64,000 bases of DNA from Solirubrobacteraceae bacterium (GCA_030447785.1 JAUJOF010000005.1:29351-93350), one strand, 5' to 3'; shown: positions 2,785 to 63,592, counted from the stretch's first letter. Program-made: numbers and translations. The notes: generated by a model not told the origin, from the sequence alone.

Positions 2785-3435
2785 GTGCCCTCCCACAAGG
2801 ACGTTGTCGCCGCCCTGCTGGAGCGCCACGGCACCACCTACGCGGGCGAGGCGGGGATCCCGCTGGGCTCGGATGCTGGACCGAGCGGGCTGTGGCGGCT
2901 GCTGTGGCTGTCGCTGTAGCTCAGCGCCCGCATCTGCGCCGACCTCGCCGTGCGGGGCGCGCGGGCCCTGGCCGACGAGGGATGGACGAGCGCCCGGAAG
3001 CTCGCCGACTCCACCTGGGAGCGCCGAGCCAAGGTGCTCAACGAGGCGGGCTCCGCCCGTTACGACGAGCGCACCGCGACCATGCTCGGGGAGACGGCCG
3101 AGCTTGATGGGCGAGCGCTACCGCGGCGACCTGCGCCGCCTGCGCGACGAGGCCGCTCGCGACCCCGCCCGCGAGCTGCTCGAGGAGTGCAAGGGAATCG
3201 GCGACGTGGGGGTGGACATCTTCTTCCGCGAGGTGCAGGGGGAGTGGCAGGAGCCGCGTCCCTTCCTGGGCGAGCGCGCGCTGCGCTCCGCGGGCAGGCT
3301 CGACCTGCCCGCGGACTTCAAACGCCTCGCCAAGCTGGCCGGGGACTCCCCCTTCGACACCGTCCGCCCGGCGCCGCGCGCGTGCGCGCCGAGCTGGCCG
3401 GCGACCACGACGAGATCCGCGACGGAGCGGCGTAG
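2785..3435 (+). pseudogene. Decayed helix-hairpin-helix endonuclease/glycosylase-like gene
   Basis: The remnants read as an HhH endonuclease-III-like protein. The pieces are an N-terminal part starting at GTG 2785 (KDVVAALLERHG), then LSARICADLAV after an in-frame TAG at 2917-2919, then GDLRRLRDEA...CKGIGDVGVDIF (the HhH hairpin) after a frameshift near 3105, and finally VRAELAGDHDEIRDG after a second shift near 3370. A nonsense codon plus two frame changes make a functional protein unlikely. The original stop (3433-3435) lies inside the tRNA-Sec fragment, so the gene ended against the attachment site. Loss could follow insertion of the neighbouring element. Confidence 0.7.
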
Positions 3436-3484
3436 GAGTCGAACCTACCCACCGGGGGGTCGCCCCGGCCGACCGGCTTTGAAG
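3423..3484 (-). tRNA. Truncated tRNA-Sec 3' half, probable attL
   Basis: On the minus strand this reads as the 3' half of a selenocysteine tRNA: anticodon loop CTTCAAA (anticodon TCA, plus-strand 3478-3484), a long GC-rich variable arm, a T-arm GTAGG-TTCGACT-CCTAC, an 8-nt acceptor strand GCCGCTCC and a G discriminator at 3423. The matching 5' acceptor (GGAGCGGC) is absent upstream, and the 5' arm of the anticodon stem does not pair. The gene is therefore cut in the anticodon loop, the usual crossover point of tyrosine integrases, next to the integrase gene. I did not find a restored tRNA-Sec at the right side. Confidence 0.6.
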
Positions 3485-3543
3485 TGCCACCAGTCCCGTT
3501 GCGACCCGGCCGTTTGCAGCGGTCCCGTGTCGCTGAGTTGCGC

Positions 3544-4782
3544 TCAGTTGCGCTGCAAGTCGCCGTTTCGGGACACGAGCGGGGACACGGCATCGCCGCG
3601 GAAGGCGCCCGACAGGCGCGCCGCGTCATCGGCGCCCGGGCGGTGGTGGACGTAGCGCATCGTCGTGGTCACGTGAGCATGGCCGAGCATCGCCTGCACG
3701 TCGCTCAGCGGGAACGCACGCACCGCGACGCTGCCGAAGCAGTGGCGCAGGTCGTGGAAGCGGATCCGACGCAGCCCGGCTGCCTCGAGCGCGGCGTGGT
3801 AGCGCTCGGTCAGGCGGTAGTGGTCTAGGTGCTCGCCGACCGTCGAGCAGAACACCAGGTCGTCCTCGGCGGTGAAGTGCTCGCGGCGGCTGAGGCGGTC
3901 CAGCGGCCCTACCAGCTCGGCCACGAGCGGCACGCTGCGCACCTTCCCGCTCTTGGGCGCCTTCTCAGCCTTCGCGGCCTTGCTCCACGCCCGGCGGACG
4001 TGGACGCGCTGGCCGGCGAAGTCGATGTCACGCCAGCGCAGCGCCAGCAGCTCGCCGAGGCGCAGCCCGGTCATCGCCGCGGTCAGGTAGAGCGTGGCGT
4101 CTTGCTCGTCGGCTGCCGCACGCGCCAGGGCGGCCAGCTCGCCGGCATCGAAGGTGTCGAACTCGCCGCTGTAGCGCACGGTGGGGCGGTCGACCAGCTC
4201 GGCGCTGGCCGGGTTGCGCTCGAGGCCGTGCTCGCGCACCGCGTGCCTGAACACGCCGTGGGCGACGGTCAGGTGGCGCACGACGGTCCGCGGCGACAGC
4301 GGCTTGGCCGAGTCGCCTGCTCGGGTGCGTCCTCGCGACGTGCTCAGCAGCTGGTCTCGCAGCTTGGCCACGTCGCGCGGCGTGATGGACACCACCGGGC
4401 GCTCGCCCCAGCGCGGGAGCAGGTAGCGCTCGATGCTGAGGCGGTAGTCGTGCACGGTCGCGTACTCGCGGCCCTTGACGTGCTCGACGTGGCGCAGGAA
4501 CCCCGCCGCGGCGTCGGCGAACGTGGCGCCGTCGGGCTGGTGGTCGTAGGCGCCCTCGCCCACCCTGCGCCGCTCTGCGGCGAGGAGGTCCGCGAGCGCG
4601 TCGTGGGCCTGGCGCTTGGTCAGGGCGCCCGCGGGCGGCTTGCCGCCGCCCAGGTGGGCAGCGGCGAGCCGGCGGGTGGTCTGCTCGGGCTCGCGCCCGG
4701 GCACGCGGGTCTTGACGTACCAGACCGGCCCCTCGCGCAGCTCGCGCCGCACGAGGTGACCGGTGACCCGGTGGGCAGCCAT
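3544..4782 (-). CDS. int: Phage-type tyrosine integrase
   Basis: Site-specific recombinase that integrates the element. At 412 residues it has an N-terminal arm-binding region, a SAM-like core-binding domain (about residues 85-190) and a catalytic domain. The catalytic residues are visible: Arg in TGLRLGELL (about 243), the HDLRH box (about 342), His in GHAHVTTT and the Tyr nucleophile in MRYVHH (about 374). It lies 60 bp from the tRNA-Sec fragment, the normal arrangement for a tRNA-targeting integrase. Its ATG overlaps the stop of the upstream small gene (TGATG), so it is read at the end of a coupled gene string. Confidence 0.93.
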   Translation of the reverse strand: MAAHRVTGHLVRRELREGPVWYVKTRVPGREPEQTTRRLAAAHLGGGKPPAGALTKRQAHDALADLLAAERRRVGEGAYDHQPDGATFADAAAGFLRHVEHVKGREYATVHDYRLSIERYLLPRWGERPVVSITPRDVAKLRDQLLSTSRGRTRAGDSAKPLSPRTVVRHLTVAHGVFRHAVREHGLERNPASAELVDRPTVRYSGEFDTFDAGELAALARAAADEQDATLYLTAAMTGLRLGELLALRWRDIDFAGQRVHVRRAWSKAAKAEKAPKSGKVRSVPLVAELVGPLDRLSRREHFTAEDDLVFCSTVGEHLDHYRLTERYHAALEAAGLRRIRFHDLRHCFGSVAVRAFPLSDVQAMLGHAHVTTTMRYVHHRPGADDAARLSGAFRGDAVSPLVSRNGDLQRN

Positions 4783-5045
4783 CAGGCGGCCTCGCGGGCC
4801 GGGCGCGGCTCGTCAGGCGGCCAGCCGATGACGTCGAGGATGTCCAGGCCCTCGCGGGCGATCGCAACGGCGTTCTGCACGTCGCTGGACAGCGCGCCGA
4901 CCGGCCAGGGCGCAACGGTCGCCAGGCGCTCGATCTCGCGGATCGCGTGCTTCAGATCCGTCGCGGCGGCGTTCATCATCGCGCGACGAACCACCTCGGC
5001 CTGCTCGGCGGTGAGGGTGACGGTGACTGCGGCGGTCGCGGTCAT
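4782..5045 (-). CDS. Small mobile-element protein, unknown function
   Basis: 87 residues with no recognised family. The N-terminus is Thr/Val/Ala-rich (TVTLTAEQAEVVRRAM), and the middle is predicted helical (AATDLKHAIREIERLA). The C-terminus is Pro/Glu/Arg-rich. It overlaps the upstream gene (ATGA at 5042-5045) and the integrase start, so it is co-translated with int. Its position and size would suit an accessory or recombination directionality role, but nothing in the sequence demonstrates it. Confidence 0.7.
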   Translation of the reverse strand: MTATAAVTVTLTAEQAEVVRRAMMNAAATDLKHAIREIERLATVAPWPVGALSSDVQNAVAIAREGLDILDVIGWPPDEPRPAREAA

Positions 5046-5359
5046 GCCGCCACCCCGTTCGCACGCATCCGGGCGTCCATGTTGCGCCTGTTGGCGTGGC
5101 TGAGATCGAAGATCGACTCAGCTCGCGCTTCCTGTTCGCGGAGGACGAGCCCCACCCGTGTGAGTACGTCGTCGGGGTGGACGTAGGCCCGCTCGAGAGC
5201 CGTGCGGACGGTCGCCTCGAGGAGGTCGAGCACGGCCTCAGCGGCGTAGTTGTCGGTCTCGATGTTCACGCGCTCGCAGTTGAGGCAGTGCTTCTCCGCG
5301 TTGAGCGTGTTGGTCGCGACGCCGCATCCGTCGCAGCGACTAGGGGTGGTCGTGGGCAT
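5042..5359 (-). CDS. Small zinc-ribbon protein
   Basis: 105 residues. The N-terminus carries two Cys pairs (CDGC at residues 9-12 and CLNC about 15 residues later), which would form a zinc ribbon. The rest is acidic and helical (LDLLEATVRTALERAY...DDVLTRVGLVLREQEAR). It starts at ATG 5359 and overlaps the downstream gene by 4 bp. It is one of several Cys-pair proteins in this element and probably binds nucleic acid or a protein partner, but no family is recognised. Confidence 0.7.
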   Translation of the reverse strand: MPTTTPSRCDGCGVATNTLNAEKHCLNCERVNIETDNYAAEAVLDLLEATVRTALERAYVHPDDVLTRVGLVLREQEARAESIFDLSHANRRNMDARMRANGVAA

Positions 5360-5362
5360 GGT

Positions 5363-5812
5363 CTACGCCTCCACCGGCTCGCGGTTGCCGTCGGCCTGGT
5401 CGAGGATCGCCTCGCACCTCTCGCACAGGTCAGCCGCCTGGCGCAGCTCGGCGCTCGACGGGCCACCCTCCTCGCCGAGCCGATCGTGCTGCGCGTGAAG
5501 CGCCGAGCGGGCGACTCGCGTGAGGGCCGGGTTTGAACGAACAGCCTTGAGCTCCACGGGGGAGCCATCCAAGGCGCAGCCCAACTGATCGACCAGCGCG
5601 TCGAGTGCGCGCATATCCGCTCGGGCGTCGTCCAGCTTTGCGAAGTGGCTGGCCCCGTCATCCCCGAGCACGTCCGAGGTCGCATAGTCGACGGAGTTCG
5701 CCGCGCTGCCAAGCAGCGAGAGCGCAGACTCTCGCAAGGCGTCGGCCAGGCCGCCCTTGACGGTGGCGCGATCGCCGGTGATGGTCAGGTGCGGCATGTG
5801 GACATCCGGCAT
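5363..5812 (-). CDS. Hypothetical mobile-element protein
   Basis: 149 residues, unrecognised. The ATG at 5812 has a good Shine-Dalgarno (AAGGAG) eight bases upstream; the frame is open further upstream, but that stretch is proline/arginine-rich non-coding sequence. The protein is mostly predicted helix, with a CERC pair near the C-terminus (ADLCERCEAILDQ). It ends three bases before the start of the next gene. It lies directly after the tape-measure gene, but nothing ties it to virion assembly. About 170 bp upstream of it hold no gene, only a small CCCAC/GTGGG hairpin. Confidence 0.65.
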   Translation of the reverse strand: MPDVHMPHLTITGDRATVKGGLADALRESALSLLGSAANSVDYATSDVLGDDGASHFAKLDDARADMRALDALVDQLGCALDGSPVELKAVRSNPALTRVARSALHAQHDRLGEEGGPSSAELRQAADLCERCEAILDQADGNREPVEA

Positions 5813-6006
5813 GGTGGGCTCCTTCGGTCGGTTGTGACGCCGAGGGTGCCGCCGGTCGGTGAGGGCGAGAACGCGCCCCTGTCGGGTAGCGTTTCGCTCG
5901 CGCCGGGGGTTGCGGCCCTCGGTGCCACGGGGCGGGCCGTTCGCGCGGCGCCGCCCCACTTTTGTGTGGGTACGTCGGGCACCCTACGCCGCCTCGGCGA
6001 GCTTGT

Positions 6007-9000
6007 CTAGCCGCACCTCGGCGATGATCGGTACCTGCACCCTCGCGGCCGGCTCGCGACCCCCACGATCGTGTTTCTCAGGTCGGTGAACTGCTGGCCG
6101 CGGGACTGCAACGCCAGCGTCCCGCCGTACTCCTTGAGATCCTCCGCGCTATCACGGATCGCCTCCTGGGCCTCCAACTGGGCCTGCAACACCGCATTCT
6201 CCTTCGCCCACACCTGCTCGGCGATCTGGCGGGCAAGCACCGGGTCGCCCTGCCCGACTGCCTCAGCCTGCTGGGCCTGCAACGCCGCGACCTCAGAACG
6301 CAACGCCGGGAGCACCTGCGCCGAGATGAAGTCCGCGCGCGCTCCGCCTCCAGTCTCAAAGGTGCCGGCCAGGCGCTGCTCGAGCTCCAAGCGCGACAGC
6401 AGGCTGTCCACGCGCGAGTAGCCGTGTGCGGTGAGATCAACGGCGTCCTGTCGCACCCGAAAAGCGGCGTCGCGGACAAGATCGGCGCTGTCGGCCATCG
6501 CCCCCGTCAACTCCACGGCCGCGCCCGCCGCCGCGTCCACGGCCTGGCGCCACACGTCGATGGACCCGACCGTCAGCGCGTGCCATGCCTGGGCGTTCAG
6601 CGCGTCGATCTGCTGGCGCAGATGCGGGATGACGTGCGCCTGGATCGCGCCCGCGCGCTCGAGCATCCCGCCCGGGGTGTCCGTGGTGCGTGCGAGGCGC
6701 TGACCGGCTTCGATTCCCGCCTGGGCATGGCGACCTAGCCCCGCATGGAACCCCACGAGATCCACGCGGTCCTGGGCGTGGGTGAAGACCTGCGCGCGGG
6801 CGTTCTGAGCGAGCTGCACCGCGGTGTCAGCGATGGAGTCCTGCAAGCCGCGCAGCTGCTCCTCGAGGTCGCGGCTGGCGTCGGTGTTCCTCGCGGCCTT
6901 GGCGCGCCTGATCGCTGCCTGAAGCGGCGCGATCTGGCCGGTCATCGCGTCGCGCTGCTGGGTCAGCCCCCATGCCGTCCACTGCAACCCCTCGACGCTG
7001 TCCGCTTCGATGCCTCGCAGGCCGAGGTGTCGCTCGACCCGCCCACCGATGCGCTGAGCGGACTCGATCGCGCCGCCCACACCAGCACCGATGCCCTGCA
7101 GGCGCTCCGTGGTCTGCGTCTGGACCATCTCCAGTGCGCGCTCCAGCCGCTCGAGCTGGGGGCGCTCGCGCGTGGCGACACCATGCCGGCGGATCCGCCG
7201 GATCATTTTCTCCAGTTCGCTGCGGGTGCGATCCAGCACCGTGAACGTCACCCGCCGCGCGTGTTGCAGCGCCTCCTCGAGTGCCTGGAGATGGCGATCG
7301 GCGCGGGTTTCCGCGTTGGCGGGCAGCGCGCCCAGCGCGCGGACCTGCGCGGTCGGGCCGCCCGTCGTGAGAACCCGCTCGGTCGCCTCACGGCCAACAA
7401 GAGTCAGCGCACGCTCGAGACGCTGCACCTGCGGACGCTCACGGCGGGTGACGCCGCCGCGGCGGACCCGCGCGATCATCCCCTCGAGTTCCTTGCGGGT
7501 GCGCTCGATCTCCGCGACGGTCACGCGACGGGTCTGGGCCAGCGCCTCCTCCAGCGCTGTTAGGGCGCGCTTGGTTCGCGTGTCGGCGTTGTGAGGCAGC
7601 TGGTTGAGCTGGCGCACCCGTGCCATCGGGTCGACGAAGCCTCCGCGGGCCGCGCGAGCGGGAACGACCTGCTCGCCCTGGTGGACGTACGCCAGGCCGT
7701 CCTGGGGGATCGTGCCGCCGGTCTGGTAGGACCCGACGAACGGGGGGACAAAGCCGCCGCGGGCATACGCCCCGCCGCCGCGGGCCTGCATCACGTTCAG
7801 CGCTCGCGCCCAGTTACCGCCACCGTAGGTCTGACGCATGTAGCGAAACGCGGCGACCGCGTTGTGCAAGGGGTTTCGGATGTTGCCCATCCCCCGCAGC
7901 ATGTGCGCCCGGAAAGTCGGGCCGATCGTCTGGAACATCCCGATCGACGGGGTGCCGCGACGGGCGTTGACATCCCAGTTGTTCTGAGCGCTGGGATTGA
8001 AGCCCGACTCGCGGCGGGCTTGGCGGACCGCCATCCCCATCCAACCCGACCGCAGGCCCTGGGGGATACCCACGACCCTCATTGCTTGGGCGATGACCCG
8101 GCGGGCCGCAGCCTCGCCGATACCGCCGCCCGGACCAGGACCGTGGCTGGTTACCGCCAGATCTTCCATCGCCCGGTCGAGCTTGCGCTGCGCCGCCCTG
8201 CGCACCTTGTCGACGGCGCCCTGCGCGATCTGCGAGACCTGCCCGAGGTCGTCGCGAACGTTCGGCCGCTTGATCCGCGCGATCCCGCCACCGGGAACGC
8301 CACCACCGCCACCCCACTCGACGTGGGCGTGGTTGCCACGGCCATGGTTCGGATACGAGATCCCGATCCCGCCGGTGCCGTACAGCACCTTCTTCCCCGC
8401 CCGGATCGCGGCACGCAACCCAGCCTCGAGGGTCGCCCACGAACCACCCGGGCCCGGGACCACATCGAGGGCTGTGCCGGTCACGTTGTGGCCCGGCGAC
8501 TGGTGGCCGCCACCCGGGTCATAGCCGTAGCCGATCTGGATCTTGAAGCGCCGGATCCACGAGCTGACCGACCGAGCGATCGCCGGGTTGACCTTGTCGC
8601 GGCCACCCGTCGTATTCGGGTCACCGGGGACGCGGACCATCCCGCCCCGCGCCATGTAGTTGGGAGTGGCGACCTTGGAGAAAAGCCCCGAGAGGCCCCC
8701 GATCGGGGCCATCATCTGGTCGGCCGCCCGCTTCTGATGGCGGGTGAAGACCGCCACGTTCTCGCCCCGAGCGATCACGTGAGGCTGGCCGTTGAGCATC
8801 GCCGGGACCGTGTCGCGGCCAGCCTCCCCCTCACGACCCACCTGCACCAGACCACCCGTGGCCTTGCGCACCGGGCCGCCACGGGCACGCTCACCGACCC
8901 CGTAGAGCTTGAGCGCGTTGGTCATCTGCCTGCGGATGTTCGCCAGGCCCCTGCTGGTCGCCTCGCGCCCGAGGCTCATCGAGGACTGGATCGCGCCTGC

Positions 9001-12000: not shown

Positions 12001-12135
12001 GGCAGTGCGCGCGAGCTTCGCGTTCAGCTTGTCCGTGGTGGCCATGGACCGCTGGACCACGCGGTCCTGGCTGAGCATCTTCTGGGTGCCACGGTCAACG
12101 AGGTCGACCAAGTAGCGGATGCGTACGTCAGCCAC
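6007..12135 (-). CDS. Phage tail tape-measure protein with M15-like and lytic transglycosylase domains
   Basis: 2042 residues. Sets tail length and probably helps DNA or particle entry. Order: Ala/Gln-rich coiled start; TIGR01760-type tape-measure core (about 190-440: DFDKALRNVN, ALAQEVGD-like segments); hydrophobic helices (about 480-520 and 660-700); Gly/Ala-rich linkers; an M15-like peptidase (about 1180-1280, H-x7-D in HNVTGTALD and HAHVEW); an SLT transglycosylase (about 1340-1460, RRESGFNPSAQNNWD); then long helical repeats. It starts at GTG 12135. The last residues look wrong: a one-base shift in the C-run near 6058-6062 restores a natural ending (VQVPIIAEVRLDKLAEAA) that stops at 5985, so the 3' end is frameshifted in nature or in the assembly. 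Confidence 0.88.
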   Translation of the reverse strand: MADVRIRYLVDLVDRGTQKMLSQDRVVQRSMATTDKLNAKLARTAQQAGTAQTQAATRAATGATQLTGAVRHLSQAQGQALQTGGRAAASMTANANATTRASAAYRGLGSAEQHAARVGAQVQQVSEATARAKRAEAAAVNQATAAHRSNRGTPRPATPRNAPPAAGGVAAGAAATGRLAVGLGAIFSAKAVIDFDKALRNVNSIAQLSERELQRVGQRVRELGGQTAQAPITLANGLYDLVSSGFNAKESMQILGSTARAATAGLTTTEVSTKAVAAVLNAYRMPASAAGKVSDQLFRTVDRGVISFESLAQEVGDVLPFASSLGVGLKQVGASIATMTKAGISAPETMTRIKAIMTTLLKPGTALSETLKKLGYESGEALIKQKGFQGALETLAKTTGGSKEELAKLFPNVRALGGALALTGKNSKGAKEDLEGMGKASGATSRALAQQSQSTAYQWQQVKANAQSLAITVGQNLLPPLNKILKTFVGLPGPVKLGIAAFAGFGLVIGPVMRLGRDIRALGGAIKTVGGVARGSRIGQALASGVKGASGRVGKALGGVRDVVARVMGRAGRSGGTAVAGSVAGNAADALPGRMGRLRDKFRRAFTSVFRSAGNSAGSVATTRIASTVSTDVGPGLNHGKRLGRMKGAFGGVGRTLGKTMGLAAVAAMTFEIYRASPELQQAFPVQVADPKKGKGMRIPILGPMLNSLLPGKRVGGRIAAMATGGLVPFMAAGGEMIVHRGRGAVVPGNPRRDGTLMAAPAGAAVLTGHGQQLMAGGATLSSALARQAPHFQAGGRVPATVTAPAPPVAMPSPADAQVVGADAGGQFVAGAAAGTVEAGAQWKVAAVEVGRQVGVATAAAGAAAYAPQFIRAAQQQLTQRAGQLVIPPDLLKAPSLEPAIGGVTAKLEQGKAMVRDFGQAAQQSLSRAETSVKGFVAASRGLSRTDAPRGLDRLADGATDVGRRFPGARGELRRFASGADNAGDQARVAGGRITRALGNAASTGGDHLERLRNTTTSSMGSVRRRMDNDSTAGRKALAGNMSSAAGAIQSSMSLGREATSRGLANIRRQMTNALKLYGVGERARGGPVRKATGGLVQVGREGEAGRDTVPAMLNGQPHVIARGENVAVFTRHQKRAADQMMAPIGGLSGLFSKVATPNYMARGGMVRVPGDPNTTGGRDKVNPAIARSVSSWIRRFKIQIGYGYDPGGGHQSPGHNVTGTALDVVPGPGGSWATLEAGLRAAIRAGKKVLYGTGGIGISYPNHGRGNHAHVEWGGGGGVPGGGIARIKRPNVRDDLGQVSQIAQGAVDKVRRAAQRKLDRAMEDLAVTSHGPGPGGGIGEAAARRVIAQAMRVVGIPQGLRSGWMGMAVRQARRESGFNPSAQNNWDVNARRGTPSIGMFQTIGPTFRAHMLRGMGNIRNPLHNAVAAFRYMRQTYGGGNWARALNVMQARGGGAYARGGFVPPFVGSYQTGGTIPQDGLAYVHQGEQVVPARAARGGFVDPMARVRQLNQLPHNADTRTKRALTALEEALAQTRRVTVAEIERTRKELEGMIARVRRGGVTRRERPQVQRLERALTLVGREATERVLTTGGPTAQVRALGALPANAETRADRHLQALEEALQHARRVTFTVLDRTRSELEKMIRRIRRHGVATRERPQLERLERALEMVQTQTTERLQGIGAGVGGAIESAQRIGGRVERHLGLRGIEADSVEGLQWTAWGLTQQRDAMTGQIAPLQAAIRRAKAARNTDASRDLEEQLRGLQDSIADTAVQLAQNARAQVFTHAQDRVDLVGFHAGLGRHAQAGIEAGQRLARTTDTPGGMLERAGAIQAHVIPHLRQQIDALNAQAWHALTVGSIDVWRQAVDAAAGAAVELTGAMADSADLVRDAAFRVRQDAVDLTAHGYSRVDSLLSRLELEQRLAGTFETGGGARADFISAQVLPALRSEVAALQAQQAEAVGQGDPVLARQIAEQVWAKENAVLQAQLEAQEAIRDSAEDLKEYGGTLALQSRGQQFTDLRNTIVGVASRPRGCRYRSSPRCG

Positions 12136-12364
12136 CGGCCCTCACCGCCCCTCCATCAGCCAACCCGAGGCCAACCCGAGGCCGACCCGCGCCGAGAACC
12201 GCAGCCCCCGCGATCCTGGCGAAGTTGCCGACCATCCTGCGGGTAGTTCGCCCGGTCGTGCGCTCCAAGCCCCGCAGCTCGCGCTCTGCCTGACCGATGC
12301 CGCGGCGGAGTCCGCGGGAGTCCGCGGTCAGGCGATATCTGAGTTCTCTGCTGCGCGCGGGCAT
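12128..12364 (-). CDS. Short tape-measure-like N-terminal protein
   Basis: 78 residues from ATG 12364, overlapping the tape-measure start by 8 bp. The sequence (RELRYRLTADSRGLRRGIGQAEREL...RRMVGNFARIAGAAVLGAG) resembles the amphipathic opening of tape-measure proteins: an R-Y-L/RLTAD strand, a coiled coil and then a hydrophobic helix. After the helix it turns into Arg/Gly-rich sequence. It may be a truncated duplicate of a tape-measure N-terminus or the remnant of a second one. No independent function is evident. Confidence 0.55.
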   Translation of the reverse strand: MPARSRELRYRLTADSRGLRRGIGQAERELRGLERTTGRTTRRMVGNFARIAGAAVLGAGRPRVGLGLADGGAVRAGG

Positions 12365-12374
12365 GAGTGAAATT

Positions 12375-12704
12375 CTACCTTCCCTTCCGGCGGCGACTGT
12401 GACGCCGACCGCCGCGTTTTTGCCCGTTACCAACCTTCACCGCAACCCAGTGCAGGCGGCGGTCCTCAGCAGCCTCACAACGCATGTGCTCGTGCCCGGG
12501 AGCCTGAAGCAGCATGAAGTAGGCGACCAGGGTGACAAAATCCTCCGGGTTCAGATCGAACAGATCAGGCAGCAGCCACGATCGCACCTGCGGGTCGAGG
12601 GCGAAGTTCGCGTCCACAATCTCTGCGATGTGCTCAGGGTCGATGCCCTGGCCGTCAGCGCGCGCCGTGGGGTGAAAGGGGGGGAAAGGGGGCTTCGGGC
12701 TCAC
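12375..12704 (-). CDS. Phage-like small protein, possible tail-assembly protein
   Basis: 109 residues, starting at GTG 12704, which overlaps the upstream stop (GTGA) and has GGAG eight bases upstream. It has a proline-rich start, an acidic helical middle (DPEHIAEIVDANFALDP, then LNPEDFVTLVAYFMLLQ) and a basic tail. It sits directly before the tape-measure genes, where tail-assembly chaperones are normally encoded; that position is the only hint to function. I do not see the slippery-site fusion typical of the G/GT chaperone pair. Confidence 0.55.
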   Translation of the reverse strand: MSPKPPFPPFHPTARADGQGIDPEHIAEIVDANFALDPQVRSWLLPDLFDLNPEDFVTLVAYFMLLQAPGHEHMRCEAAEDRRLHWVAVKVGNGQKRGGRRHSRRRKGR

Positions 12705-13180
12705 AAGGACCACTCCGGTCGGATCGCCCCCAACGTCGGGGCCTCCCTCAGCCGGGCGCGACGCTCAGCCGATCGCCCCGCCGCGATCGACTCGATCTGC
12801 GCTTGGCCACCGACCTCCGCCACCGCACGCCACCGCAAGTTGCGCCGGCCCTTCGGCGTAAGGCCAAGACCGTCCATCCGCACTCGCACTTCGCCGCTCA
12901 GCGCGGCCGTCGGCTGGCGATGGCACTCCTCAGCGAGCCGGATGGTGTCCAGCGCGTAGGCGATATCGGCCGGCGTGTACTGCCCTGTCGACGGGTCCGC
13001 GCGCCACGCCCTCCACAACCGGCGCGTGGCCTCAGACCACGGCCCGTGGCCCCGCGCGCGCCTGGGCAGCGAGGGCAGCACCGGGGTCTCGAGCGGCGCG
13101 AGGTCGACCCACTCCCCGCCCGCCGGCACGTTGCGGCGCCGACGCTGTCCAGGTTGCTTCGGAGGCGCCCCCGGGGTCAC
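12701..13180 (-). CDS. Terminase-small-subunit-like protein, paralogue 1
   Basis: 159 residues. It resembles the small-terminase-like proteins of actinophages: a basic GQRRRRN N-terminus, a hydrophobic WSEATRRLWRAWRAD segment, YTPADIAYALDTIRLAEE, and a C-terminal GLTPKGRRNLRWRAV helix. Such proteins recognise packaging sites and recruit the large terminase. It starts at GTG 13180, two bases after the upstream stop. The preceding gene has the same plan and shares the PxQPGQRxRRN start, so this is a tandem duplication. There is no large terminase in the element. Confidence 0.6.
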   Translation of the reverse strand: MTPGAPPKQPGQRRRRNVPAGGEWVDLAPLETPVLPSLPRRARGHGPWSEATRRLWRAWRADPSTGQYTPADIAYALDTIRLAEECHRQPTAALSGEVRVRMDGLGLTPKGRRNLRWRAVAEVGGQAQIESIAAGRSAERRARLREAPTLGAIRPEWSL

Positions 13181-13182
13181 CG

Positions 13183-13650
13183 CTACACCGCCCGCAACTT
13201 GCGGACCTCCGCCGGCCCACGCTTGGCCGACGGCGACCGCTCAGCCTGGGCGACCTCCCACTGCAACCGCCGGCGCGCCAACGGAGAAATCCCGAAGCGA
13301 TCCTCAAGCTGGCGAATCTCGCCGTCGCCGTCGAAGCCGCGGACGACCGTCACCTCGCCATCAACGCTGGACGCCGCGAAGACCTCCGGGTCACCCGCCT
13401 CCACGCGCTCGCGCCGATCAACCAGCGAACACAGACGCGTCAACGGGAAGACATCGGCCTCCGTATACGTCGCAGCCATCGGCGAGGACCACAACGCACG
13501 CCAATACGCCTGGCCGAACTCGCCCCACACGACGCTCGTGCGCGGCTTCGGAGCCCTCCCAGAACGCCCCCCGGCCGGAAGCTGACGCCACTCGCTCTGC
13601 TCCCGATTGCGCCGCACACGCTGCCCCGGAGGCTTCGGCGTAGCGCCCAT
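13183..13650 (-). CDS. Terminase-small-subunit-like protein, paralogue 2
   Basis: 155 residues from ATG 13650, with CGGAG a few bases upstream. Same layout as the following gene: a PKPPGQRVRRN start, a central WGEFGQAYWRALWSS...YTEADVFPLTRLCSLVDRR segment, and a C-terminal FGISPLARRRLQWEV helix. The two proteins are clearly related but diverged, with more negative charge in this one's middle. Presumably DNA-recognition subunits. A role in diverting packaging to element DNA would fit a satellite lifestyle, but this is inferred from context only. Confidence 0.58.
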   Translation of the reverse strand: MGATPKPPGQRVRRNREQSEWRQLPAGGRSGRAPKPRTSVVWGEFGQAYWRALWSSPMAATYTEADVFPLTRLCSLVDRRERVEAGDPEVFAASSVDGEVTVVRGFDGDGEIRQLEDRFGISPLARRRLQWEVAQAERSPSAKRGPAEVRKLRAV

Positions 13651-13747
13651 TACTCCGATTCCCCAGATCCGTACACACCGACAGCGAGGTGGCGGGAGCA
13701 GGGAACGGGGTCGTCGCCCGCGAGGATCGGGTGCCGCCCCCCGGTCA

Positions 13748-14623
13748 TCAGTCCACCACCTCAAGCTCCGCGGGCTCCGCGACGAGCCCATGCCAGCGCT
13801 TGCGTCGGATGACCCAAGGGGTGAGACCTAGCCCTTGGGCTTCTCCCACACCGGTCACGATGAGGCCCACGTAGCGGTCGACGATCCCGCAGGCGGTGCC
13901 GTTCGCGTGGCTCCATGCGTTTGCCCACACCCTCAGGTCCGCAGTGCTCGGTCCCGTCGGGCCGCCGGGGTGTGAGTGCCACGCCCCGCAAACCGCGATC
14001 TCGTGACCCGCCAAGACCCTGTCTTTGATCTTGCCATGCTCAACCCGGAAGTCGAGCCCGAAGGTGCTGCGACCAAGGAGAGAGGACGGGCCAGGAGGGT
14101 GCGCTTCGATGACCTTGGTGCTCGCAGCGTCGCTTCGCGAGCGCAAACACGGGCGCAAACCGACCAGCAGGCCACCAGTTTCGTGAGTGCGCGGAACCGC
14201 GCGGGTGGCGGCTTGGAGACCGTCGAGCGCGTGGCGCGACAGCTTCACCACCGTCGGTGAGACAGTGGACGAGAGGTCAGGGAGCTCTCCGGTTCGATGT
14301 AGCGGCGCACTAAACCCGAGGGACCAAGTGGGGGGCGGCAGATAGTCGTCGTCCGGCAGCGTCGGTCCGGCGGTGCGGGAGCTTTGCCCAGCGGTCTTGC
14401 CGGTCCGTCCGTTGGATGGAGAGGGAAACTTTTCCTTTCCATCCCGGTTCGGGGATACAGGTTTGAGCCCGAACTTCTCCGGATAGTCGCGGACGATCGG
14501 GTGATCGGGCGCGACACAGTCAACGCCGGCCGTGATCTCGACGCGCTCGCCGTCGTACAGCGCGGTGAACGACTGCGTCGCGACCAGCATGTCTCGCTGG
14601 TTCGGTGGGTTGTCAGTACGCAT
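13748..14623 (-). CDS. JAMM/MPN metalloprotease-domain protein
   Basis: 291 residues from ATG 14623 (GGAGG six bases upstream). The C-terminal half is a JAB1/MPN domain with the complete JAMM zinc motif: the Glu in HETGG, then HSHP followed by a Ser and an Asp eight and eleven residues later (WHSHPGGPTGPSTAD). Prokaryotic JAMM proteins cleave ubiquitin-like tags or phage tail components. The N-terminal part (FTALYDGERVEITAGVD...DHPIVRDYPEKFG) resembles a small beta-rich domain seen at the start of phage structural proteins. A proline/serine-rich linker joins them. Substrate unknown. Confidence 0.75.
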   Translation of the reverse strand: MRTDNPPNQRDMLVATQSFTALYDGERVEITAGVDCVAPDHPIVRDYPEKFGLKPVSPNRDGKEKFPSPSNGRTGKTAGQSSRTAGPTLPDDDYLPPPTWSLGFSAPLHRTGELPDLSSTVSPTVVKLSRHALDGLQAATRAVPRTHETGGLLVGLRPCLRSRSDAASTKVIEAHPPGPSSLLGRSTFGLDFRVEHGKIKDRVLAGHEIAVCGAWHSHPGGPTGPSTADLRVWANAWSHANGTACGIVDRYVGLIVTGVGEAQGLGLTPWVIRRKRWHGLVAEPAELEVVD

Positions 14624-14884
14624 GGGATTCCTCCGTAGTGGGGGTGAGTGGTCTCGCCGCCCGGCCGCCCAGGAGGGCGAGACGGCCGGGCTGGGCGAGA
14701 TCCCCGCGCTGCTGAGCCTCCACGGCGCGGCCTCGACGCGGAGCGAGTCCACGCGAAGATCAGTAAGTGTGAAGTCCGCGCCGGTCGACATGCCAGCGCA
14801 GCCACGGCGCGGACAGACGAGCCGGTGATCGCTCCACAGCAGCACAGAGCCGCAGGTGGGGCAGGTCTCAGCCGCCAGCGTCAC
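14624..14884 (-). other. In-frame upstream zinc-ribbon coding segment
   Basis: From GTG 14884, which overlaps the upstream stop as GTGA, the frame is open straight into the JAMM gene with no stop codon. The first 30 residues make a compact zinc ribbon (CPTCGS, then CPRRGC). The following 45 residues are Pro/Ser/Arg-rich and look unlike protein. Either the JAMM protein is really 378 residues with an N-terminal zinc ribbon, or a small ribbon gene has lost its stop and the JAMM gene restarts at 14623, where the Shine-Dalgarno is strong. Confidence 0.45.
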
Positions 14885-15111
14885 GACGCCTCCCGCTCGC
14901 TCGTGGGCGTGCTGCCGCCGCGGCGCTCGAAGTCCTCGAGGGCGTCGACGCGCCAGCGCTTGTAGCGCCCGAGTTGCACGGTCGGCAGCAGTCCCTCGCG
15001 GGCCATGCGGTAGACGTGCGCTCGCGGCACGGCCCACCGCTCGGCGACCTCCTCGGCAGTCAGCAGGCGGCCAGGCGCCGTGTCAGTTGCGTGAGCGGGC
15101 CGAGCGGTCAC
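14881..15111 (-). CDS. Excisionase/MerR-type helix-turn-helix protein
   Basis: 76 residues from GTG 15111, overlapping the upstream stop (GTGA). The core (LLTAEEVAERWAVPRAHVYRMAREGLLPTVQLGRYKRWRVDALEDFERR) is a textbook excisionase/AlpA-like winged helix-turn-helix. In mobile elements such proteins bend DNA for excision or switch on element genes. It is the only clear DNA-binding regulator seen here, and together with the integrase it would control mobilisation. The frame is open further upstream, but that would overlap the preceding gene extensively. Confidence 0.78.
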   Translation of the reverse strand: MTARPAHATDTAPGRLLTAEEVAERWAVPRAHVYRMAREGLLPTVQLGRYKRWRVDALEDFERRGGSTPTSEREAS

Positions 15112-15539
15112 GGTGTCGACCTCCGCGCGCGGTAGGCCCGTTGCCGACAGGCGTTTGAGCAGTAGCGGGCATCCTCCCGCTTGAACTTCCACGCCGAGGG
15201 CATGTGCTCGTGGATGCTGTTCTCGCAGCCGGGGCCAGCGCACTTGTTCCACGGTGTGACCGTGCGCTTCGGGGCGTTACGGCTGTCGCGGCGCGCGCGC
15301 TTAGACGTAACGCTCACGCCGCTGTCCTCCCACGTCGGGCTGGCCATGCGCCGCCAGGCCAGGAGCGCGGCGTATCCGTCGCCGTCGCGCCGTGCGCAGC
15401 TGTCGCAGACGGCCCCTTTGAAGTCGCCGGGCTCGCTCGCGTGCCAGTGGCCGGCGGGCAGCTCGAGGACATCGAGGCAGCGCGTGCACTCTGCGGCGGT
15501 GGCCTGGTGGGCGAGGCGGTGAGCGACGCGGGCGCTCAT
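15108..15539 (-). CDS. Cys-rich zinc-finger protein
   Basis: 143 residues. Two metal-binding clusters are visible: CTRC with CDSC in the first 50 residues, and CAGPGC with CSNAC near the C-terminus (RYCSNACRQRAYRARR), the latter like small zinc fingers in phage and plasmid proteins. Between them is a basic linker. ATG 15539 overlaps the stop of the previous gene by 4 bp, and the TGA overlaps the HTH gene start. Probably nucleic-acid binding. No specific role can be assigned. Confidence 0.7.
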   Translation of the reverse strand: MSARVAHRLAHQATAAECTRCLDVLELPAGHWHASEPGDFKGAVCDSCARRDGDGYAALLAWRRMASPTWEDSGVSVTSKRARRDSRNAPKRTVTPWNKCAGPGCENSIHEHMPSAWKFKREDARYCSNACRQRAYRARRSTP

Positions 15540-15799
15540 GCTTCCTCCCCGGGACCGAAGATGACATCAGCTTCTGCCTCGCGGAAGAGGCGATCCGCGC
15601 GCTCACCAGCCGTGATGCACCCGGGGCAGACGTCCGAGACCGATTCGTCGTCGGTGAACTGCTCCCATCCGGGCAGGTGCTCCCACTGGGCAGGCGGTCG
15701 ACGAAAGGCAGCCGGAGAGAAGTCCTCGACGATGACGATCTCCTCGGGAACTTCGACGTGCGTGTTGCAGCGGTCGCAAGTCCAGACCATGCGCCTCAT
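15536..15799 (-). CDS. Small acidic zinc-ribbon protein
   Basis: 87 residues, with CDRC at residues 8-11 and CPGC about 50 residues later, otherwise acidic (VPEEIVIVEDFSP, then REAEADVIFGPGEE). The two Cys pairs could close one zinc site. It is coupled to both neighbours by 4-bp overlaps and follows the ATPase gene. It could be a partner of the replication ATPase or a transcription-related ribbon. Nothing more is evident. Confidence 0.68.
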   Translation of the reverse strand: MRRMVWTCDRCNTHVEVPEEIVIVEDFSPAAFRRPPAQWEHLPGWEQFTDDESVSDVCPGCITAGERADRLFREAEADVIFGPGEEA

Positions 15800-17223
15800 G
15801 CCATCTCTCCGGTCCGCCCGCAGACCGCGCAGCGGAGCTCGTCATCCTCGGGGTCGGGGATCGGGACCGGTCGCTCGCACCGGCACCGCTCCACCACAGT
15901 CGCGCCATTCACGTCGGTTTGGCGCGACTGTGCGAACGACGCGGCGAAATCCCCCATGTTTGCTGGGGTTTCGCCAGTCGCGCCAGTCGCGCCGTAGCCA
16001 GTGGCGCCATTGAGGGTGGCGCGACTGTCAAGGCTCCACCACGTGACGCGCGGGAAGCCCTCGGATTCCATGCTCACCTCGGCGTCGTGAGCGGCACGTT
16101 GGAGCGTGCGCTCGGGGATGCCCTGGCGCTTGGCGGCCTCCTTTATCTCCTTCGCGCGGTGGCGCTCACCGTCGCCGAGCAGGTCGGCCAGCAGCTCCTC
16201 AGCGCGCTCGAGCTTGGTTGCCGGCGGGTCGTCTTGGTCGGTGCCCAGCAGCGCCGTTCCGGCCACGCCGCACTCCCCGAGCGCCACGAGGCGGTTCGTG
16301 TCGACGGTCGCGCCGCCAGCGGTGACGCTGGTTGTCTCGTGCGCGTAGGCGAGCGTCGGTGCGAGCCGTGCCCAGTTGGACTTCACGTGCCCGAGGGCGC
16401 GCCGGTCGCCGCCCTCACCCTCGGGGTCGTCGGGGTCGCGGGTGAAGACCAGCAGGGAGCGCGCGCCGCCGACCAGGCCAATGGACCCACCCACTCTGTA
16501 GATCGCATCGGTGCCCTGCGCCTTGTTCAAGTGGGCGACGACGACAACGGCGATCCCCAGGCGCTGCGCCATCCCGGCCAGCGGCGCGAGAGCCCGCCGG
16601 ACGCTGTGGTCGCTCTTGGTCGAGACCTGCTCGCCCAGGTGGGCGCTCAGCGGGTCGACGATGACCAGCCGAGCACCGGCCTCGCGGGCGTGGGCCTCGA
16701 GGCGCGCTACGTCATCGGGGAGGGTGAACGGGCGCTCCTGGCCCTCCGCGTCGCGGATGGTGAAGAACTCGACGCGGGCGAGGTCGGCCTCGGCGGCTGC
16801 CAGTCGCGGGACGATGACGTGGCCCGGCGAGTCTTCGGCGTTGGCGACGAGGACGGTGCCGGCAGGCCCGTAGCGGCCCGCGGTGACGCCGGCCGCCAGC
16901 TGGCACGTCCACGTCGACTTGCCGAGCCCAGGATCACCGGCGAGCAGAGTCAGCGCGCCGAGCGGCACCCGGTCCGCGAGCAGGAACTCGACCGGCTCCA
17001 CGCGCACGTCGCAGGCGCGGATGATCCGCAGGCCGGGCGTCCGTCCGTTGCCTGCGCTGGTGCCTTCCGGGGTCGGCTCCGGGAGGATCGCCGCGCTCGG
17101 CCGGTAGGGCCGGGCGGTGCAGCTCTCACATAGGACGCGCTCGTGGTGTTCTCGGCTCGACGCGACCTGGACGTCTTCGCGGTGGCATCCGGTACAACGG
17201 CCGCTCCAGGTGGGAGCGCTCAT
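15796..17223 (-). CDS. RepA-like RecA-fold ATPase flanked by zinc ribbons
   Basis: 475 residues. The central domain is a RecA/DnaB-fold ATPase of the RepA/AAA_25 type: Walker A GDPGLGKST near residue 93, Walker B LVIVDPLSAH near 188, and a sensor-like VVVVAHLNKA. RepA-type hexameric helicases replicate small plasmids and phage-like elements. An N-terminal zinc ribbon (CTGC, CESC) and a C-terminal one (CRC, CAVC) flank it. A winged-helix-like stretch (EIKEAAKRQGIPERTLQRAA) precedes the tail. No primase gene is visible next to it. It starts at ATG 17223 and overlaps the upstream gene. Confidence 0.8.
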   Translation of the reverse strand: MSAPTWSGRCTGCHREDVQVASSREHHERVLCESCTARPYRPSAAILPEPTPEGTSAGNGRTPGLRIIRACDVRVEPVEFLLADRVPLGALTLLAGDPGLGKSTWTCQLAAGVTAGRYGPAGTVLVANAEDSPGHVIVPRLAAAEADLARVEFFTIRDAEGQERPFTLPDDVARLEAHAREAGARLVIVDPLSAHLGEQVSTKSDHSVRRALAPLAGMAQRLGIAVVVVAHLNKAQGTDAIYRVGGSIGLVGGARSLLVFTRDPDDPEGEGGDRRALGHVKSNWARLAPTLAYAHETTSVTAGGATVDTNRLVALGECGVAGTALLGTDQDDPPATKLERAEELLADLLGDGERHRAKEIKEAAKRQGIPERTLQRAAHDAEVSMESEGFPRVTWWSLDSRATLNGATGYGATGATGETPANMGDFAASFAQSRQTDVNGATVVERCRCERPVPIPDPEDDELRCAVCGRTGEMA

Positions 17224-18011
17224 CGCCCCGCCTCCTCGCGCTCGACGGCGAGCAGGACGCGCAACAGGGCGGGCGTGACCTTGGCGTAGCGCTCATGCCG
17301 CCAGAGCTTGAGCTCCGGCGGCGGTGATGGGCCGTCGTCATCGCTAGGGCTGCCTCGGCTCGCCGTCGCGGTGCGCCGGGCGGGCGCGGCACGTCGGCCA
17401 CGCGAGCGAGTTCCGGTGCGCCGCCGGCTGGCGCAGGGACGCGGCCTGGGAGGCGTCGAGTGCTGCGCCTTCGGCGCTTTGGGGTGGAGGATGGCGTTAG
17501 CCTCGGCGACTACCTCGGGGGTAGCACCCAACTTGCGTAGCCGCTCCCAGAAGGTCGGATCGCGGCGATGGAGTGCAAGGCCGTGAGCTTCCATCTCGTC
17601 GCCGAGGACTTGGCTCCAAGGGCAGTTGTTGTCGTGGTCGCCGTCCTCGTCGTACCAGGCCTCGCAGCCGTGCAGCTCGCAGGAGTGCTCGCGATCTCCG
17701 AAGTAGCACGCCATGTCCCAGTCGCGCATGCCCCGGAGATCGTCGGCCGATAGCCGGCGTAGGCAGACGTTCCGCAGTGCCTCCTCGCGCACCGCACGGT
17801 ACTTCTCGAAGGCGCTAAGGGAACAGGCCGCATCTCCGTCCCCGTAGACCTCGACCATGCCGGCGGCGGTCACCTCGAAGGGGTCGTGGAAGGGCGCGGC
17901 GTGGTGCCAGTTGGCACCATCGACGTTCGAAGTGAAGAAGGTCGTGGCCGCGTCGTCGTCGATCTCGACGACTTCGTCGGGCCCTTCCCAACCGTCGTAC
18001 TCGTCCTGCAC
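17220..18011 (-). CDS. Hypothetical protein at the head of the element operon
   Basis: 263 residues from GTG 18011 (GAGGGA nine bases upstream; the frame is open to 18101 but without a good start). An acidic N-terminus is followed by a His/Cys/Asp-rich middle (WDMACYFGDREHSCELHGCEAWYDEDGD) that could bind metal, and a helical C-terminal part interrupted by an Arg/Pro/Ser-rich linker. No family recognised. As the first gene of the minus-strand string it is followed by the RepA-like ATPase with an ATGA overlap, so it may take part in replication or control. Confidence 0.6.
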   Translation of the reverse strand: MQDEYDGWEGPDEVVEIDDDAATTFFTSNVDGANWHHAAPFHDPFEVTAAGMVEVYGDGDAACSLSAFEKYRAVREEALRNVCLRRLSADDLRGMRDWDMACYFGDREHSCELHGCEAWYDEDGDHDNNCPWSQVLGDEMEAHGLALHRRDPTFWERLRKLGATPEVVAEANAILHPKAPKAQHSTPPRPRPCASRRRTGTRSRGRRAAPARRTATASRGSPSDDDGPSPPPELKLWRHERYAKVTPALLRVLLAVEREEAGR

Positions 18012-18107
18012 GGGTCTGCGTCCCTCTCGGTAGCCCGGCTCAGCCAAGCGCCGGATCGCTGGGCAAAGCTTAGAGGCCTCACCCGACGACACGCCGTGCA
18101 CAACGAA

Positions 18108-18137
18108 CGAACGCCGGCCTCGGGGGGCCGGCGTTCG
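18108..18137. terminator. Perfect 12-bp hairpin at the element's right side
   Basis: Arms cgaacgccggcc (18108-18119) and ggccggcgttcg (18126-18137) with a 6-base loop. No T-run follows on either strand. It separates the tRNA at 18311-18384 from the first gene of the element, so it may stop tRNA read-through or mark the element boundary. The 170 bp between it and the tRNA show no gene and no copy of the tRNA-Sec core. Confidence 0.6.
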
Positions 18138-18310: not shown

Positions 18311-18384
18311 TGGGCCGGGTGGGACTCGAACCCACGTCGTACGGATTATGAGTCCGCTGCTCTGACCAACTGAGCTACCGGCCC
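18311..18384 (-). tRNA. tRNA with CAT anticodon (elongator Met, or Ile2)
   Basis: 74 nt with a complete cloverleaf: 7-bp acceptor GGGCCGG/CCGGCCC with A discriminator, D-loop with GTTGG, anticodon stem CGGA/TCCG around the loop CTCATAA (anticodon CAT), and T-arm GTGGG-TTCGAGT-CCCAC. CCA is not encoded. CAT with a CTCATAA loop fits elongator tRNA-Met, but tRNA-Ile with a lysidine-modified CAT looks very similar, and I cannot separate them by eye. Its 3' end faces the mobile element. Confidence 0.93.
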
Positions 18385-63489: not shown

Positions 63490-63592
63490 CCCGGGCCGGC
63501 GGCCCTTCGGTGGTGGCCCGGCTTGCTCCTTACGTTGGAGCCCCGAGGCTTTGCGTCCCACCCTCGCGGGTGGTTTGCCCTTTGCACCTTGG
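63490..63592 (-). promoter_or_regulatory. Cyclic-di-GMP-I (GEMM) riboswitch
   Basis: The minus strand reads AAAGGGCAAACC, then a stem CCACCC-GCGA-GGGTGG with a GNRA tetraloop (63573-63558), then GGGACGCAAAGCC, then a second stem GCTCC...GGAGC. These are the conserved blocks of the GEMM-I aptamer (GGGCAAACC; GGGACGCAAAGCC; tetraloop and receptor). A further GC-rich stem (CCGGGCC/GGCCCGG, about 63492-63520) follows. It sits in the pilA leader, so pilin synthesis should respond to c-di-GMP. Its outer P1 stem is not clear by eye. Confidence 0.82.

What the first reader, a model, noticed from the sequence alone, without database searches (positions are those of the whole stretch)
3423..18137. Possible phage-satellite-like element: integrase, RepA-type ATPase, two small terminases, JAMM protease and a full-length tape measure, without capsid genes
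About 14.7 kb between a cut tRNA-Sec and a CAT-anticodon tRNA holds a coherent, mostly coupled minus-strand gene set. Integrase + AlpA/excisionase-like HTH + replication ATPase + small terminase is the toolkit of phage-inducible islands. Unusual here are the 2042-residue tape measure and a JAMM protease with no capsid, portal, large terminase or other tail gene. Seen: the gene content. Known: PICI/P4-type satellites use int, alpA, rep and terS to parasitise helpers. Inferred: this may be a satellite family that manipulates a helper's tail as well as its packaging. A decayed prophage is the sober alternative, but the genes between the ends are largely open and tightly coupled.
Basis: partly seen in the sequence, partly recalled or inferred. 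Interest (0 to 1): 0.75.

Follow-up and report, generated by a model that had tools for sequence, protein, structure and literature searches.

The report
Satellite-like element with tape-measure gene
A soil actinobacterium carries a tRNA-borne DNA element that looks like a parasite of bacterial viruses and brings its own tail-length 'ruler' gene but no virus head genes; three comparable elements, one of them elsewhere in the same genome, make it unlikely to be a one-off wreck of a virus.

Summary
The gene content is real: integrase, excisionase-like HTH, RepA-type ATPase, two small terminases, JAMM peptidase and a 2042-aa tape measure protein (TMP), with no terL, portal or capsid detected. Int, xis and repA belong to families found in small (about 3-19 kb) tRNA-inserted elements in Solirubrobacterales. 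Sibling elements carry a head module without tail genes, terS+terL, or defence cargo. TMP without other recognised tail genes recurs in a second element of the same genome (contig C5: p112 homologue, TMP, leader hairpin, p149, int), in a Conexibacter genome (19.1 kb, 44-bp att repeats; MCP+TMP), and in an IMG/VR contig (terS, terL, TMP, int, tRNA-Cys att). p112, just upstream of TMP, is under purifying selection (dN/dS 0.25). Best reading: a TMP-bearing phage satellite, analogous to the Vibrio PLEs that build chimeric tails with their own TMP (Nature 2026). Caveat: the ends do not match. The right end carries a 66-bp tRNA-Sec fragment whose intact partner lies on another contig; the left end abuts tRNA-Met. 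So the element is a hybrid of two siblings or a draft-assembly chimera. It also shows a truncated older TMP start and a probable TMP C-terminal frameshift. Helper dependence is untested.

The parts
3419..3484 (-). attR: 66-bp 3' part of tRNA-Sec, from the anticodon to just past the 3' end
   Evidence: identical to intact tRNA-Sec at G000:C21:4078-4168; only two copies in the assembly; G001 has the empty site
3544..4782 (-). tyrosine integrase, 412 aa
   Evidence: PF00589 3.3e-28; clade with G025, L276, L093 and phage L174, support 0.987
4782..5045 (-). p87, unknown, overlaps int
5042..5359 (-). p105, zinc-ribbon-like; same position as C5 p119 but no BLAST similarity
5363..5812 (-). p149, unknown; homologue (199-aa ORF) in the C5 element
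   Evidence: 38% identity over the 198-aa ORF
5929..5957 (-). conserved leader hairpin with bulged C and 6-nt loop, after a promoter-like TAGACA-17-TAGGGT (6009-5981), leader of p149-p105-p87-int
   Evidence: found in 6 elements of the family; all pairs kept, 4 of 9 covary in 5 distinct sequences
6007..12135 (-). tape measure protein, 2042 aa, with SLT domain; probable frameshift near the C-terminus
   Evidence: PF10145, phrog_167 2e-61; 44% identity over 525 columns to C5 TMP; frames
12128..12364 (-). p78: truncated N-terminus of another (C5-type) TMP, stop overlapping the TMP start
   Evidence: 67.5% identity over 77 columns to C5 TMP residues 1-71
12375..12713 (-). p112, directly upstream of TMP; candidate tail assembly chaperone (inferred from position only)
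   Evidence: 78% identity to C5 p110, dN/dS 0.25; single-sequence model poor
12701..13180 (-). small terminase 1
   Evidence: PF25673 7.2e-18; matches gene 1 (terminase small subunit) of actinophages
13183..13650 (-). small terminase 2 (start MGATPK; the ORF extends to 13791)
   Evidence: PF25673 1.3e-15; 31% identity to terS1
13748..14623 (-). JAMM/JAB metallopeptidase, 291 aa, HSHPGG...STAD motif intact; the longer ORF (to 15037) also covers a zinc ribbon from about 14884
   Evidence: PF14464 2.4e-7; PADLOC JAB 1.8e-11
14881..15066 (-). xis/AlpA-type HTH (61 aa from LLTAEE; the ORF runs to 15252)
   Evidence: phrog_66 1.2e-10; homologues in L177, G025, G107
15108..15539 (-). zinc-finger-like protein, 143 aa
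   Evidence: homologue next to repA in G001
15536..15799 (-). zinc-ribbon-like protein, 87 aa
   Evidence: sequence
15796..17223 (-). RepA-type ATPase, 475 aa
   Evidence: AAA_25 1.8e-29; homologues in 13 of 150 related genomes
17220..18101 (-). p293, unknown
   Evidence: no family match
18311..18384 (-). tRNA-Met (CAT), left boundary; sequence diverges from G001 right after the tRNA 3' end

Best explanation
This is a phage-satellite-type integrative element of Solirubrobacterales (Thermoleophilia), of a subtype that carries its own tape measure protein. Proposed working: the integrase (with xis) inserts and excises the element at the 3' half of tRNA genes (insertion shown by att repeats in siblings). 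RepA starts replication after excision (inferred from family). The small terminases would steer a helper phage's large terminase to package the element's DNA (inferred). The TMP, with p112 as a possible chaperone, would be built into tails made of the helper's tail tube and tip, giving chimeric tails whose length the satellite sets (inferred, by analogy with PLEs). Head, terL and the rest of the tail must come from a helper. This copy has mismatched ends (tRNA-Met and tRNA-Sec), so it is a hybrid of two sibling elements, by real recombination or by assembly, with the likeliest junction at about 12,135, where an older TMP start is cut off.
For: Small elements of the same int/xis/repA families: ten loci bounded by 34-46 bp tRNA repeats, about 3 to 11 kb. 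Head-without-tail members with terL, portal, capsid, xis, int and often repA (L175-L180; L180 circular with a 35-bp terminal repeat). TerS+terL members (G107, G018, L120, L139). TMP members: C5 in the same genome; Conexibacter sp. S30A1 with 44-bp tRNA-Cys repeats at 442,340 and 461,439, MCP+TMP, no terL or portal; L276 with terS-terL-two small genes-TMP-int-attR. Ints of the window, G025 and L276 fall in one clade, support 0.987. p112/p110 dN/dS 0.25. Overlapping starts terS1-p112 and p78-TMP. No portal gene found in the assembly. Precedent: PLE TMPs are incorporated into virion tails (PMC12987554).
Against: Ends come from two different tRNA genes. A truncated second TMP start and a probable TMP frameshift suggest damage or assembly error. 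No helper phage identified, no induction data. The close int clade also contains a full-size phage (L174), so int alone does not prove satellite life. p112 as chaperone rests on position only (model pLDDT 54). One of the four TMP elements (G025) has a capsid gene, and the TMPs are mostly mutually divergent.
Confidence: 0.58

Rival explanations
1. A decayed prophage: an ordinary siphophage lost head, packaging and most tail genes by deletions and only fragments remain.
For: Truncated TMP start at 12128-12364 and a probable frameshift near the TMP end; repA and int families also occur in full-size phage contigs.
Against: The same plan (xis, zinc ribbon, peptidase, p112, TMP, leader, p149, int) recurs on C5 with different int and replication genes; L276 and Conexibacter also hold TMP without portal or other recognised tail genes; p112 is under purifying selection; genes are overlapping and mostly open.
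Confidence: 0.22
2. A draft-assembly chimera: the contig joins the left part of an element at tRNA-Met to the right part of another at tRNA-Sec, so this exact gene set does not exist in the cell. (Not exclusive of the satellite reading of each half.)
For: attR is tRNA-Sec while the left end abuts tRNA-Met; the same-genus genome has the two tRNA-Sec flanks directly joined; C21 carries intact tRNA-Sec plus another repA-bearing left end whose repA frame runs into an unrelated sequence near the contig end.
Against: terS1-p112 and p78-TMP overlap at their starts and the order from xis to int matches C5; a real chromosomal inversion between two resident siblings would give the same picture.
Confidence: 0.35
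3. A satellite or island whose TMP is not built into virions but acts as a decoy that blocks tail assembly of invading phages (defence), or has a cell-wall role through its lytic domain.
For: Tail assembly is a known defence target (PMC12987554; PMC11364771, found); siblings carry defence genes such as SIR2, AbiE and type IV restriction.
Against: Length and domain make-up are those of complete TMPs with a lytic domain; in PLEs the TMP is found in the virion tail.
Confidence: 0.1

Closest known systems
PLE (phage-inducible chromosomal island-like elements) of Vibrio cholerae
   Same: Satellites that encode their own TMP plus a putative tail assembly chaperone and use the helper's other tail parts (PMC12987554)
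   Different: Different host phylum; here RepA/xis/tyrosine integrase at tRNA genes, two small terminases and JAMM; p112 not shown to be a chaperone; PLE gene set not searched here
Capsid-forming PICIs (cf-PICIs)
   Same: Sibling elements L175-L180 carry packaging and head genes but no recognised tail gene, as cf-PICIs do (PMC10690885); some cf-PICIs are reported to carry predicted tmp genes
   Different: The window element has no capsid, portal or terL
Streptomyces satellites MulchRoom and MiniFlayer
   Same: Actinobacterial satellites with their own head and packaging genes, MulchRoom with an integrase (PMC10690885)
   Different: No TMP reported in the passages read; different lineage and gene set
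PICI/SaPI and P4-type satellites
   Same: int, xis/AlpA-like HTH, replication ATPase, terS (own knowledge of these families)
   Different: No capsid-remodelling gene recognised; TMP and JAMM present

Membership tests
Phage satellite (general) | Integrase and att site, discrete element smaller than the helper phage | tested here: inconclusive
   int and one genuine att end present; the two ends belong to different tRNAs in this copy; siblings have matching 34-46 bp repeats
Phage satellite (general) | Lacks a complete set of virion genes | tested here: met
   no terL, portal or capsid by sibling seeds; no other head or tail gene in PHROG/Pfam scans of the main ORFs apart from weak tail hits of JAMM
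Phage satellite (general) | Depends on a helper phage for packaging and spread | not testable with these tools
   needs induction or infection experiments
cf-PICI | Encodes MCP, protease, portal, connectors, terS, terL | tested here: not met
   window element lacks them; met in part by siblings L175-L180
PICI | int, AlpA/Stl-type regulator, rep, terS in order | tested here: inconclusive
   int, xis-like HTH, repA and terS present; no Stl-type repressor identified
PLE | TMP with adjacent tail assembly chaperone | tested here: inconclusive
   TMP met; p112 sits where a chaperone would but no profile match and a poor fold model
PLE | Homology to the PLE gene set (capsid remodelling, PLE integrase) | not tested
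   no PLE genes were fetched for comparison
Prophage (decayed) | Same genes found together with head and full tail genes in intact relatives | tested here: not met
   full-size phage L174 shares only the integrase; p112 found only in this genome among 151

The most novel reading that the evidence does not exclude
A large satellite family of Thermoleophilia swaps whole modules (head, terminase, tape measure, defence) on related int/xis/repA backbones, and one branch (window, C5, L276) carries terminase-type and tape-measure genes but no head genes: satellites that hijack helper heads and rebuild helper tails around their own ruler, evolved independently of PLEs.
Probability: 0.42. Interest if true: 0.78.

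Novelty: new variant of a known kind. Interest (0 to 1): 0.6.

Why it matters
Satellite-encoded tape measure proteins were reported experimentally only in 2026, for Vibrio PLEs, with a note that other satellites carry predicted tmp genes (PMC12987554). If the reading is right, tail reprogramming is a recurrent satellite strategy in an environmental phylum, with two such elements in one genome. The Conexibacter element, in a complete named genome, gives a copy in which tail length and virion content could be tested.

Tried and rejected
Full phage relatives of terS1 in IMG/VR: none; of the TMP: one weak match. JAMM relatives in 150 related genomes: none. TMP searches over relatives failed twice on the server. 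Coordinate or reference errors. p112 fold prediction: low confidence, not used. tRNA-Met as true attR partner: rejected, no second copy of its 3' end in the assembly. L174 as the intact parent phage: rejected, no TMP recognised and only the integrase shared. p112 in IMG/VR: none. Idea that the terS-TMP step is a simple deletion scar: weakened by overlapping starts and the C5 copy.

Full report
What is there. The window lies at G000:C8:29351-93350 of a 3.3-Mb draft genome in 41 contigs, 87.7% complete. Among its relatives is G025, a single contig of 3,458,291 bp that equals Conexibacter sp. S30A1 by length and content, so the host is placed in Solirubrobacterales, class Thermoleophilia. Between 3419 and 18310 all genes run on the minus strand. 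From the tRNA-Met side they are p293, RepA-type ATPase, two zinc-finger-like proteins, xis-type HTH, a zinc ribbon and JAMM peptidase, two small terminases, p112, p78, a 2042-aa TMP, a conserved leader, p149, p105, p87 and integrase. Seeds for terL, portal and capsid taken from sibling elements find nothing in the window element.

The ends. ARAGORN's odd tRNA at 3424-3515 is a 66-bp 3' fragment of tRNA-Sec (3419-3484), identical to an intact tRNA-Sec on contig C21, starting at the anticodon. In G001, of the same genus, the C21 side and the window's left flank are directly joined at tRNA-Sec. So 3419-3484 is a genuine attR, but its partner is on C21, not at tRNA-Met. At the other end the sequence diverges from G001 right after the tRNA-Met 3' end, as an insertion there would, yet no second tRNA-Met fragment exists in the assembly. 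C21 next to tRNA-Sec holds another element end with a repA homologue (39% identical over part) that runs into unrelated sequence near the contig end. The window therefore joins two chromosomal loci. A recombination between two resident sibling elements or an assembly chimera would both explain it; the data do not decide.

The family. RepA relatives occur in 13 of 150 related genomes, and the integrase in many Solirubrobacterales. Where both ends are visible, 34-46 bp tRNA repeats bound elements of about 3 to 11 kb, and 44-bp repeats bound one of 19.1 kb. Contents fall into types: head genes (terL, portal, capsid) without recognised tail genes, L175-L180, with L180 circular; terS+terL without capsid, G107, G018, L120, L139; integrase with cargo such as AbiE; G002 and G004 carry SIR2-type genes, and G004 also a type IV restriction enzyme. 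This is the make-up expected of phage satellites.

TMP elements. (1) C5 in the same genome: D5 primase, xis-like HTH, zinc ribbons, terS-like HTH, a protein with an HEAGH metallopeptidase motif, p110, TMP of 1640 aa, leader, p199, p119 and integrase up to the contig end; no terL, portal or capsid found. It shares 550 bp at 76% (p112 to the TMP start), 500 bp at 80% (inside the TMP) and 196 bp at 83% (leader and p149) with the window, while the integrases are only 27% identical. (2) Conexibacter sp. S30A1: repA, xis, a capsid protein (its homologue in L130 matches phrog_2263 at 1.5e-18), TMP of 1475 aa with a phage lysozyme domain, a transposon-like insert and an integrase 50% identical to the window's; 19.1 kb between 44-bp tRNA-Cys repeats. 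(3) L276, an 18,088-bp IMG/VR contig: DnaB-like helicase, xis, RusA-like, terS, terL, two small genes, TMP of 1744 aa, two small genes, integrase and a tRNA-Cys fragment; no portal or capsid. The integrases of the window, Conexibacter and L276 form one clade with L093 and the phage contig L174 (support 0.987). L174 is a different full-size phage that shares only the integrase.

Selection and damage. p112 and p110 have dN/dS 0.25 by Nei-Gojobori over 110 codons. terS1-p112 and p78-TMP overlap at their starts. Against integrity: p78 is the truncated start of a C5-type TMP lying directly before the present TMP, and the TMP's own natural C-terminus seems to continue in another frame. Phage-like mosaic replacement, a hybrid junction or assembly error would all explain these.

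Mechanism. Shown: insertion into tRNA 3' halves, family gene sets, absence of head genes here. Inferred: replication by RepA, terminase redirection by terS, and use of the satellite TMP in tails otherwise made by a helper. The closest tested case is PLE of V. cholerae, where satellite TMPs replace the phage's in chimeric tails; the authors note predicted tmp genes in other satellites, including cf-PICIs (PMC12987554). Actinobacterial satellites with own heads are known in Streptomyces (PMC10690885). The window element fails the cf-PICI definition (no capsid).

Side finding. A hairpin with a bulged C and a 6-nt loop follows a promoter-like sequence upstream of the integrase module in this element, in C5 and in L093, and occurs in three further elements; all pairs are kept and 4 of 9 covary. 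No Rfam family matches it in the window.

Verdict. A real and unusual gene set, best read as a TMP-bearing satellite of a poorly described satellite family, in a copy whose ends show that it is a hybrid or mis-joined.

Noticed in passing
window 5929-5957 (-); L282 14904-15060; L032 6469-6394; L093 231-265; L035 112-67; L031 about 9221 (-): Conserved covarying hairpin (bulged C, CGCNAA-like loop) after a promoter-like sequence, upstream of the integrase module where the downstream genes are visible; no Rfam match in the window.
   Followed up: partly
L175-L180 (IMG/VR contigs, 9-14 kb): Head-encoding elements without recognised tail genes (terL, portal, protease/capsid, xis, int, often repA) in the same integrase family; L180 is circular with a 35-bp terminal repeat.
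   Followed up: partly
L036, L038, L120, L139: Elements of about 8-10 kb with terS and terL but no capsid; in L036, L038 and L120 terL is followed by a roughly 200-230-aa protein.
   Followed up: partly
L035 463-1554; L029 7201-8193 and 8283-9836; L100 12167-13591: Sibling elements carry candidate defence genes: SIR2-like, type IV restriction (Mrr), AbiEii.
   Followed up: no
L026 (G000:C21) 1-1100: A repA-like frame appears to run into an unrelated, glycoside-hydrolase-like sequence (by eye) near the contig end, a possible misassembly.
   Followed up: no
window 63508-63588 (-): c-di-GMP-I riboswitch-like match just under the Rfam gathering score (58.3 vs 59 bits).
   Followed up: no
L091 16636-18822 (Conexibacter sp. 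S30A1): Possible Tn7/TniAB-type transposon genes (by eye) inserted in the Conexibacter TMP element, between the TMP and the integrase-side genes.
   Followed up: no
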